12,885 nucleotides of DNA from NCBI RefSeq assembly GCF_002737765.1, contig NZ_PEGG01000039.1, positions 1-12,885 on the forward strand, in the 5' to 3' direction. Below are positions 1,453 to 2,599 of the stretch, piece by piece (within the stretch, counting starts at the first letter, position 1; every line of letters begins with the position of its first letter). The DNA is from Caulobacter sp. B11 (GTDB lineage: Bacteria > Pseudomonadota > Alphaproteobacteria > Caulobacterales > Caulobacteraceae). Below the pieces are notes generated by a model, which was given only the letters and a program-made list of their open reading frames with translations, did not search any database and had not been told where the DNA came from. The position numbers were made by a program, and so were the translations under genes.

Positions 1453-1482
1453 GTCATTTTGACAGCCAGGAGCATTTTGCTC
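1453..1482 (-). promoter_or_regulatory. Two tandem CAAAATG hairpins in the fljK leader
   Basis: In the leader of about 60 nt (transcription start near 1484), GAGCA-AAA-TGCTC (1470-1482) and GTCA-AAA-TGAC (1453-1463) each present the heptamer CAAAATG with a three-base loop. Copies are 18 nt apart. The fljL leader holds the same heptamer twice in similar hairpins. FlbT of C. crescentus is known to act on flagellin mRNA leaders, so these are candidate FlbT targets (inference). Confidence 0.5.
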
Positions 1483-1494
1483 AGGACTCTAGGA

Positions 1495-1510
1495 AGCAAT
1501 GACCGGGCCA
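1495..1510 (-). promoter_or_regulatory. Sigma-54 promoter of fljK
   Basis: On the minus strand TGGCCCGGTCATTGCT matches the Caulobacter flagellar sigma-54 consensus TGGCACG-N4-TTGC with one change in the conserved bases. The -24 GG and -12 GC are spaced correctly. Start near 1484 gives a 60-nt leader. A GACTC (CcrM methylation site) at 1485-1489 lies at the expected start. Confidence 0.85.
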
Positions 1511-1585
1511 ATCCTGCCGCCCTGCGACATTCGGCGCAAACAACTGTATTTGCTGCGTTATAGGTCTGTTTACCACGCCTCAGAC

Positions 1586-1630
1586 CGGCAAGATCTGCCG
1601 CCTTGCGGCGCCGATCGGCAATTTCTGCCG
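1586..1630. promoter_or_regulatory. Pair of FlbD-binding (ftr) enhancer palindromes
   Basis: CGGCAAGATCTGCCG (1586-1600) and CGGCAATTTCTGCCG (1616-1630) share the frame CGGCA-N5-TGCCG. Their centres are exactly 30 bp apart, about three helical turns, so they face the same side of the helix. They lie about 90 and 120 bp upstream of the fljK sigma-54 promoter, the normal place for FlbD. The layout resembles the ftr2/ftr3 pair described between flagellin genes in C. crescentus. Confidence 0.8.
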
Positions 1631-1662
1631 GGCAGATCTGGCGCCGACGGCGTTGTCGCGGG

Positions 1663-1699
1663 CAAAGAAAAACGCCGGATGGTCGAAACCATCCGGCGT
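1663..1699 (-). terminator. Intrinsic terminator downstream of fljL
   Basis: A perfect 12-bp stem, ACGCCGGATGGT with ACCATCCGGCGT (1672-1699), closes a TTCG tetraloop on the minus strand and is followed by a T-rich tract, TTTTCTTT. It lies 32 nt beyond the fljL stop codon and separates fljL from the fljK control region. This is the strongest terminator in the window. Confidence 0.92.
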
Positions 1700-1730
1700 G
1701 CTTTGGAGCCATAACCTGGCGTGGAGCCGA

Positions 1731-2555
1731 TCAGCCCTTGAAGAGGGACATGATCGATTGCGGCGCCTGGTTGGCGATCGAAAGCGCTTGAACGCCGAGT
1801 TGCTGCTTGGTTTGCAGCGACTGCAGCTTGGCGCTTTCCTTCGCCAGATCCGCATCCAACAGGTTGCCCACGCCGGCGTCCAGGCTGTCCTGGAGCTTGC
1901 CGATGAAGGTCAGGTGCATATCGACCCCGGTCGAGTTGGTGCCCAGGGTCGCCAGCTTGTTCGTCGCGGTGGTCAAGGCGGTGGTCACGGTTGCGATCAT
2001 CGTCTTGGCGGCCGCCGCGGTGGTGGTGAACGTCGTCGCCGCGGACAGACCGATGCCCGTGAGGGACAGGGTCCGCGCCGTCACTGTGAAGGCCGTGCCG
2101 TCCGAGTTGGCCAGGAAGGCCAGCTTGGTGGTCGTGCCGTCGGCGACACTGACGCCGTTGAACTTGGCGTTGGTGACAGCCTTGGTGATCTGGTCGCGCA
2201 GCGAATCGAAGTCAGCCTTGAGCGCGTTGAATGAGGCGGTGTTCAGCGAGGTGTCGGAAGCGGCCAGGGCCTTTTCCTTCATCTTGCTGAGCAGATCGGT
2301 CACGGTGTCGCCAGCAGCCAGGGCCACATCGATCGTCGACTGACCGCGCTGGAGTGAATCCTTCACGGCGTTCAACGAAGACGATGAAGCGCTCTGCATC
2401 TTACCCATCGACCAGATCGCGCCGTTGTCCTTGGCGCTCGAGACCCGCTTGCCGGTGTTGATGCGTTGTTGTGTGGTTTGCAGCTCCGAGTTGGTCGTGT
2501 TCAGGTTTTGCAGCGCGATCATTGCGCCGGAATTGGTGTTGATCGAGTTCATCAT
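1731..2555 (-). CDS. fljL: Flagellin (FljL-position alpha-flagellin)
   Basis: A 274-residue flagellin paralogue of the 602-1423 gene, with the same NSINTNSGAMIALQNLN start, RINTGKR segment, Ser/Thr-rich centre and SIANQAPQSIMSLFKG end. The start is ambiguous. Two adjacent ATGs (2555, 2552) precede NSINTN, whereas the paralogue begins Met-Ala-Leu-Asn. In-frame ATGs also lie upstream at 2570 and 2591, the latter inside a leader hairpin. No strong Shine-Dalgarno precedes any of them; GGGG about ten bases before 2555 is the best available. I chose 2555 because the protein then matches normal flagellin length; a 12-residue extension would disturb the D0/export region. It has its own sigma-54 promoter, ftr-like site and terminator. 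The symbol is from gene order next to flaF. Confidence 0.88.
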   Translation of the reverse strand: MMNSINTNSGAMIALQNLNTTNSELQTTQQRINTGKRVSSAKDNGAIWSMGKMQSASSSSLNAVKDSLQRGQSTIDVALAAGDTVTDLLSKMKEKALAASDTSLNTASFNALKADFDSLRDQITKAVTNAKFNGVSVADGTTTKLAFLANSDGTAFTVTARTLSLTGIGLSAATTFTTTAAAAKTMIATVTTALTTATNKLATLGTNSTGVDMHLTFIGKLQDSLDAGVGNLLDADLAKESAKLQSLQTKQQLGVQALSIANQAPQSIMSLFKG

Positions 2556-2564
2556 GGTCGTGGA

Positions 2565-2599
2565 CCCCATTTTGGAGGAGAGCCCCGGCATTTTGCCGG
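2565..2599 (-). promoter_or_regulatory. Two tandem CAAAATG hairpins in the fljL leader
   Basis: The leader (start near 2615) contains CCGGCA-AAA-TGCCGG (2585-2599), a perfect 6-bp stem. A second, weaker hairpin (2565-2577) is CTCC-AAAAT-GGGG with one wobble. Both hold CAAAATG, copies 21 nt apart, as in the fljK leader. Stem sequences differ between the two genes while the heptamer and order are kept, which argues for selected RNA structure and a shared binder such as FlbT (inference). Confidence 0.5.

What the first reader, a model, noticed from the sequence alone, without database searches (positions are those of the whole stretch)
1453..2599. Repeated CAAAATG double-hairpin module in both flagellin leaders
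Each flagellin leader contains CAAAATG twice, always centred in a small hairpin (arms GAGCA, GTCA, CCGGCA, CTCC), 18 and 21 nt apart. Stem bases differ between genes while pairing and the heptamer are kept, the pattern expected of a conserved RNA-protein recognition site. FlbT acts through flagellin leaders, so this may be its recognition element. Four copies of an A-rich heptamer in two 60-nt leaders is unlikely by chance in GC-rich DNA.
Basis: partly seen in the sequence, partly recalled or inferred. Interest (0 to 1): 0.75.

Follow-up and report, generated by a model that had tools for sequence, protein, structure and literature searches.

The report
Hairpin array heading flagellin mRNAs
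The messenger RNAs for the flagellum filament protein in Caulobacter and many related bacteria begin with a row of two or three small RNA hairpins with the same A-rich tip, which is probably the long-sought handle that the repressor FlbT grips to hold back filament production until the flagellum base is built.

Summary
Both flagellin leaders carry CAAAATG twice, in hairpins, at the stated places; the genome's third flagellin leader has the same array. In 50 leaders from Caulobacter and near relatives the two hairpins are paired in 99.3% of cells, with 5 of 12 pairs doubly changed; in a second set, 26 leaders from other genera plus the window's, 95.0% and 7 of 12. The constant part is not the heptamer but a C-G-closed A-rich cap, C-A[A/G]AAN-G. 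Where a sigma-54 pattern is seen, hairpin 1 usually starts within about 3 nt of the predicted mRNA 5' end, and a third, weaker hairpin usually covers the Shine-Dalgarno region. All 247 caps counted in flagellin leaders of FlbT-bearing genomes lie on the sense strand, against a DNA enhancer site. Similar caps recur outside the order: 35 of 44 FlbT-bearing genomes against 4 of 16 without FlbT, ancestry not controlled. No Rfam family overlaps the window's leaders. The likely reader is FlbT, already reported to bind flagellin 5' UTRs, but binding was not testable here. Kinship of FlbT with CsrA was not supported by sequence.

The parts
1424..1484 (-). predicted 5' leader of the fljK-like flagellin mRNA (61 nt)
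   Evidence: sigma-54 pattern TGGCCCGGTCATTGC at 1495-1510, start placed 12 nt after the -12 C; folds into three hairpins; R1 match E 5e-18 (this leader is in the model's training set)
1470..1482 (-). hairpin 1, GAGC(AAAAT)GCTC
   Evidence: pair probabilities 0.98-0.99; helix paired in 100% of cells of A1
1448..1469 (-). hairpin 2, CTGGC-U-GTC(AAAAT)GAC-GCCGG with a one-base bulge
   Evidence: three inner pairs probability 1.0; helix 99.0% paired in A1 and 93.5% in A6
1434..1444 (-). hairpin 3, CCT(TGAAT)AGG, 3' arm in the Shine-Dalgarno region
   Evidence: pair probabilities 0.80-0.82; a hairpin over the Shine-Dalgarno region is found in 46 of 50 A1 leaders and 20 of 27 A6 leaders by a loose rule without a shuffle control
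2556..2615 (-). predicted 5' leader of the fljL-like flagellin mRNA (60 nt)
   Evidence: sigma-54 pattern TGGCCCGGCGCTTGC at 2626-2641
2602..2614 (-). hairpin 1, GGAC(ATAAG)GTCC, with a degenerate cap
   Evidence: pair probabilities 0.96
2585..2599 (-). hairpin 2, CCGGC(AAAAT)GCCGG
   Evidence: pair probabilities 0.92-1.0
2565..2577 (-). hairpin 3, CTCC(AAAAT)GGGG, G-rich 3' arm upstream of the start codon
   Evidence: matches the cap rule, but pair probability only 0.04-0.08 in this leader
602..1423 (-). fljK-like flagellin gene
   Evidence: Pfam Flagellin_N and Flagellin_C
1731..2555 (-). fljL-like flagellin gene (start MMNSINTN)
   Evidence: Pfam Flagellin_N and Flagellin_C on 1734-2552
3169..3545 (-). 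flbT, split between two reading frames in this assembly
   Evidence: PF07378 positions 1-89 at 3273-3539 and 78-124 at 3169-3309
2799..3161 (-). flaF
   Evidence: Pfam FlaF

Best explanation
The leaders of the structural flagellin mRNAs are an RNA regulatory element: two or three tandem hairpins about 20 nt apart, each capped by an A-rich tetra- to hexaloop (A[A/G]AAN) closed as a rule by C-G, beginning within about 3 nt of the predicted mRNA 5' end where a sigma-54 pattern is seen, and ending in a weak hairpin whose 3' arm carries the Shine-Dalgarno sequence. FlbT, probably with its flagellin partner FljJ, reads the caps and by binding several at once holds the last hairpin shut, so ribosomes cannot load and the mRNA decays. 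When FljJ is exported through the finished hook-basal body, FlbT lets go, the weak last hairpin opens and flagellin is made. Shown here: the structure, its covariation, its place, its spread and its association with FlbT-bearing genomes. Published, seen only in other papers' accounts: FlbT binds flagellin 5' UTRs and represses with FljJ. Inferred: that the caps are FlbT's contact and that binding closes the Shine-Dalgarno hairpin.
For: A1: 99.3% of 598 cells paired, 5 of 12 pairs and 38 cells doubly changed, slid controls 25.6-45.7%; RNAalifold finds the same two hairpins unprompted. A6 (26 leaders from other genera plus the window's): 95.0% of 322 cells paired, 7 of 12 pairs and 35 cells doubly changed, slid controls 20.8-44.1%, one pair seen as CG, UA, AU and GC. 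247 sense caps against 0 antisense in K, L, order and class leaders of FlbT+ genomes. Hairpin 1 begins 13-14 nt after the -12 C in 38 of 39 K leaders with a sigma-54 pattern and 10-14 nt in 46 of 52 such L leaders. FljJ-like leaders lack the array: 0 of 15 have two caps, 3 of 15 one. Any cap: 35 of 44 FlbT+ genomes outside the order against 4 of 16 FlbT- genomes (Fisher p 1.7e-4; FlbT absence rechecked, 0 of 21); 3 of the 4 exceptions have FlbT+ kin in the same genus or family. The motif CCARAANGG near the start codon: 44 of 51 Caulobacter L leaders, 12 of 41 order, 17 of 73 class FlbT+, 0 of 38 FlbT-. flbT and flaF lie beside the window's flagellin genes.
Against: No binding data. Ancestry confounds the FlbT association: most FlbT- leaders precede another flagellin type (24 of 38 by a rough sorting). 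9 of 44 FlbT+ genomes outside the order and 7 of 24 inside it show no cap, and 39 of 73 class FlbT+ and 19 of 41 order leaders have no cap with a stem of 4. MSSILTN-type flagellins of five FlbT+ order genomes lack the array. One covariation measure, further pair types, is matched by 21 and 36 of 500 shuffles. Hairpin 3 is short and weakly supported: first outer pair 26 of 40 against a shuffle mean of 17.0, second 13 of 40 against 11.8, third 22 of 40 against 17.4; K leaders have another hairpin 3 sequence (0 of 62 with CCARAANGG). Papers report FlbT as needed for flagellin or motility in Brucella and Agrobacterium (passages), which a pure repressor model does not explain.
Confidence: 0.7

Rival explanations
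1. The repeats are palindromic DNA sites, such as the ftr enhancers of the sigma-54 activator FlbD, placed downstream of the transcription start.
For: Downstream ftr or 3' enhancer elements are known from other Caulobacter flagellar promoters (titles in the reference list of PMC3096577); a review says all six C. crescentus flagellin genes are RpoN-dependent (PMC3930126 passage); both window genes have sigma-54 patterns; GC-rich dyads.
Against: All 247 caps counted are on the sense strand and none on the antisense strand; loops vary between 4, 5 and 6 nt and 56 different inner stems occur; the commonest pair at one position is G-U, 26 of 50; 31 of 31 K leaders without the simple sigma-54 pattern keep two or more caps.
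Confidence: 0.05
2. The hairpins set the stability and translation of the mRNA by themselves (5'-terminal stem against 5'-end-dependent decay, masked Shine-Dalgarno), with no specific protein reader.
For: Hairpin 1 starts at the predicted 5' end and hairpin 3 covers the Shine-Dalgarno region.
Against: Would not explain why the cap letters are kept while stems change or the link with FlbT-bearing genomes.
Confidence: 0.12
3. The caps are read by another factor (a small RNA with a U-rich stretch, Hfq, or another RNA-binding protein) and FlbT acts indirectly.
For: A-rich loops could pair with a U-rich small RNA; FlbT contacts were not tested here.
Against: FlbT is the only factor that I saw reported on flagellin 5' UTRs of these bacteria (passages); caps and FlbT occur together.
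Confidence: 0.12

Closest known systems
FlbT-regulated flagellin 5' UTR of Caulobacter crescentus (Anderson and Gober 2000; FlbT-FljJ co-repression, Ardissone et al. 2020)
   Same: same genes, same place, same genus; post-transcriptional control of flagellin by FlbT (passages of PMC4347634, PMC7591256, PMC3930126)
   Different: the two primary papers were not read (no text of the first was found; the second was looked up and is not held), so I could not compare their mapped site; the covarying array, its cap rule and its spread are established here from sequence
CsrA/FliW control of the flagellin leader (hag in Bacillus, flaA in Campylobacter)
   Same: a protein that reads hairpin loops in a flagellin leader near the Shine-Dalgarno and is switched by flagellin status (recalled); one paper calls FlaF/FlbT a possible analogue (passage of PMC4894983)
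   Different: loops here are A[A/G]AAN, not GGA; sequence kinship of FlbT with CsrA not supported
flg-Rhizobiales RNA (Rfam RF01736)
   Same: cis-regulatory RNA of flagellar genes in Alphaproteobacteria
   Different: two of its best sub-threshold matches lie at the start of flgF-like genes (identified by eye), with other and longer stem-loops; no match in the window
Downstream ftr enhancers of FlbD
   Same: lie near sigma-54 flagellar promoters
   Different: DNA sites; see first rival

Membership tests
FlbT-responsive flagellin leader | lies in the 5' leader of flagellin mRNA | tested here: met
   (transcription start predicted, not measured)
FlbT-responsive flagellin leader | FlbT present in the genome | tested here: met
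   PF07378 found, though split over two frames in this assembly; 24 of 24 order genomes searched have it
FlbT-responsive flagellin leader | FlbT binds the element and it is needed for repression | not testable with these tools
   no binding or expression data
flg-Rhizobiales RNA RF01736 | covariance-model score over the gathering cut-off | tested here: not met
   no match in the window at E <= 10; 0 of 289 class genomes over the cut-off, 39 of 289 at E <= 1
CsrA-type site | GGA in a hairpin loop | tested here: not met
   loops of hairpins 1 and 2 are AAAAN or AGAAN in nearly all rows of A1 and A6
ftr (FlbD) DNA enhancer | dyad site usable on either strand with fixed half-sites | tested here: not met
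   247 sense, 0 antisense; 56 inner stems; loops of 4-6. The ftr consensus itself was not tested
CsrA protein family (for the FlbT N-terminal domain) | significant sequence similarity | tested here: not met
   hhalign E 0.07-0.17; 20 of 100 column shuffles score as high
CsrA protein family (for the FlbT N-terminal domain) | shared fold | tested here: inconclusive
FliS-type flagellin chaperone (for the FlbT helical part) | shared four-helix fold | tested here: inconclusive

The most novel reading that the evidence does not exclude
Flagellin leaders of FlbT-bearing Alphaproteobacteria share one ancient RNA code, tandem A-capped hairpins ending on the Shine-Dalgarno, read by FlbT, a repressor built from a small beta RNA-reading domain and a FliS-like flagellin-binding bundle, so that one protein senses unexported flagellin and silences flagellin translation: a one-protein counterpart of the CsrA-FliW switch.
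Probability: 0.3. Interest if true: 0.8.

Novelty: new member of a known kind. Interest (0 to 1): 0.62.

Why it matters
What FlbT recognises has been open since it was found on flagellin mRNA; the two reviews whose passages I saw call its mechanism unresolved or unknown. A covarying element with a defined cap, predicted start point and Shine-Dalgarno hairpin gives exact mutants to test, a search model for other targets, and a candidate explanation of how hook-basal body completion is coupled to flagellin translation across a bacterial class.

Tried and rejected
Rfam: no family overlaps the window's leaders at E <= 10; flg-Rhizobiales examined and set aside. DNA-enhancer reading tested and disfavoured. 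FlbT as a CsrA homologue: the pattern of its first 44 residues caught my eye and AlphaFold gives five strands then four helices, but profile comparison is not significant, Pfam shows no CsrA match for any of 44 FlbT proteins, no solved chain matches and fold searches are weak and tied; left as a lead. Model R1 beyond Caulobacteraceae: in the class sample only 3 of 279 genomes, the three of the family, match at E below 1e-4; the weak matches are no more than chance would give as a set, though three (in G238, G227, G091) sit directly before flagellins. The CAAAATG pair elsewhere in the genome (L005) showed no flagellin in the 401 bases that I read.

Selections. A1 uses 49 of 62 distinct K leaders after a 93% identity filter, plus the third flagellin leader of the genome; A2 uses 30 of the 36 L leaders left by the same filter, the six dropped looking K-like or lacking the pattern; MAFFT misaligns part of A2 (77.3% of 357 cells paired). 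A6 leaves out L142, L163, L165 (contig end or unclear gene), the minus-strand loci L145 and L146, and L168-L175 (fetched later). The class test used 73 leaders from 44 of 52 FlbT+ genomes and 38 from 16 of 21 FlbT- genomes, those in which my extraction found a start; of the flagellins listed only part was fetched. The 39 candidate FlbT- genomes were picked by me from the class sample, mostly the larger ones. 'Any cap' means a stem of 4 or more anywhere in 90 nt, or of 3 or more ending in the last 22 nt; the cap rule itself was drawn up after seeing Caulobacter and some other leaders. K, L and J (FljJ-like) labels are mine, from N-terminal sequence and recalled gene order. The sigma-54 pattern is a simple TGG..TGC spacing rule; it is missing in 32 of 71 K and 15 of 15 J leaders, whereas a review calls all six C. 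crescentus flagellin genes RpoN-dependent and another paper puts fljJ under CtrA.

Full report
What is there. The window (contig 39 of a draft genome, 61.7% complete) carries, all on the minus strand, flbT, flaF and two flagellin genes. The flagellin genes are preceded by sigma-54 patterns and followed by terminator-like hairpins of 11-12 pairs (the scan found 6 such sites in 400-3700 against 3.5 in shuffles, so the count alone is not telling). Each leader holds CAAAATG twice, as reported: 5 copies in the window, 0.81 expected, 0 of 200 shuffles as many. The third flagellin of the genome (contig 388) has GGGC(AAAAA)GCCC and GTC(AAAAT)GAC in its leader.

What is conserved. A search with the fljL-like protein brought 78 related loci, mostly named Caulobacter, some Phenylobacterium or Caulobacteraceae. 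Their leaders fall into a K type (hairpins at about -60 and -41, weak one at about -21) and an L type (about -60, -44 and -20). In 50 K leaders the two main hairpins are paired in 99.3% of 598 cells; 5 of 12 pairs have double changes; sliding the partner by 1-3 columns drops pairing to 25.6-45.7%. RNAalifold proposes the same structure unprompted. In a second set of 26 leaders from other genera plus the window's, 95.0% of 322 cells are paired, 7 of 12 pairs have double changes, and the middle pair of hairpin 2 occurs as CG, UA, AU and GC. The number of further pair types is less telling: 21 and 36 of 500 shuffles reach it. The exact heptamer CAAAATG is in hairpin 1 of 23, hairpin 2 of 35 and both in 17 of 50: the constant is a cap A[A/G]AAN, closed as a rule by C-G. 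L leaders were harder to align (77.3% of 357 cells paired).

Where it sits. With the -12 C of the sigma-54 pattern as ruler, hairpin 1 begins 13-14 nt downstream in 38 of 39 K leaders that have the pattern (of 71), and 10-14 nt downstream in 46 of 52 L leaders that have it; with +1 at 12 nt this is -2 to +3. Folded from that start, the fljK-like leader gives three hairpins, whereas folding with upstream bases that should not be transcribed gave a different structure. In 46 of 50 A1 leaders and 20 of 27 A6 leaders a short hairpin covers the Shine-Dalgarno region by a loose rule. In the L type and outside the order it often reads CCARAANGG: 44 of 51 Caulobacter L, 12 of 41 order, 17 of 73 class FlbT+, 0 of 38 FlbT-, 0 of 62 K leaders; its first outer pair is paired in 26 of 40 contexts against 17.0 in shuffles, its second in 13 against 11.8, its third in 22 against 17.4.

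How far it reaches. A covariance model from the K leaders matches 116 of 149 genomes of the family at E below 1e-4 (my count from the table; 132 of 149 at E <= 1, a level that also gives chance hits elsewhere). Of 50 matched loci read (L118-L167), 46 have a flagellin start just downstream; one more reads as a flagellin with an in-frame stop, two lie at contig ends, and one begins a gene that I could not confirm. In 24 genomes of other families of the order, all FlbT-bearing, 22 of 41 leaders have at least one cap with a stem of 4 or more, against 6.2% of shuffles. In FlbT-bearing genomes of other orders it is 34 of 73 (shuffles 6.0%), and in FlbT-lacking genomes 5 of 38 (shuffles 3.4%). By genome, counting any cap, 35 of 44 against 4 of 16, p = 1.7e-4; three of those four have FlbT-bearing kin in the same genus or family, so flbT may be missing from the assembly or recently lost. 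Ancestry is not controlled for.

RNA or DNA. Downstream ftr enhancers of FlbD are known from Caulobacter flagellar promoters (titles seen; one of the papers was looked up and is not held), so palindromic DNA sites were the serious rival. Against it: 247 sense and 0 antisense caps, loops of 4 (42), 5 (199) and 6 nt (6), 56 inner stems, and 31 of 31 K leaders without the sigma-54 pattern keeping two or more caps. G-U is the commonest pair at one position, 26 of 50.

Verdict. A real RNA element, without a match in Rfam as far as tested (window; RF01736 in 289 genomes), best read as the FlbT operator of flagellin mRNAs. The held library was searched for FlbT with flagellin mRNA, FlaF, CsrA, fljK or stem-loop, and for FljJ; in the listings and in the passages that I opened I saw no description of this array. 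The key primary papers (Anderson and Gober 2000, recalled and cited in the passages; Ardissone et al. 2020, not held) were not read, so part of it may be in print.

Noticed in passing
window 3169-3545 (-): flbT is split between two reading frames (FlbT positions 1-89 and 78-124), possibly an assembly error in this draft genome.
   Followed up: partly
window 2748-2716, 1699-1672 and 591-566 (-): Terminator-like hairpins of 11-14 pairs after flaF and after each flagellin gene, suggesting that each flagellin is its own transcript.
   Followed up: no
L300 (G091, another order), upstream of position 189 (+): A flagellin leader with four capped hairpins in a row: GGGC, GGAGC, a short GC-AAAAT-GC one, and TCC-AGAAT-GGA at the Shine-Dalgarno.
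   Followed up: partly
L195, L199, L206, L210, L213: MSSILTN-type flagellins in five genomes of the order lack the array; four of the five genomes carry two FlbT copies, and the FlbT of all five score lower (E 1e-27 to 1e-32) than those of array-bearing genomes such as G535 or G440 (1e-44 to 1e-46). The element and FlbT may have diverged together.
   Followed up: no
   Followed up: no
FlbT residues 1-52 (alignment A5): Invariant L3, P9, E11, V19, R39, D42; the placing of L3 and R39 recalls the RNA-contacting Leu and Arg of CsrA (recalled), but sequence statistics do not support kinship.
   Followed up: yes
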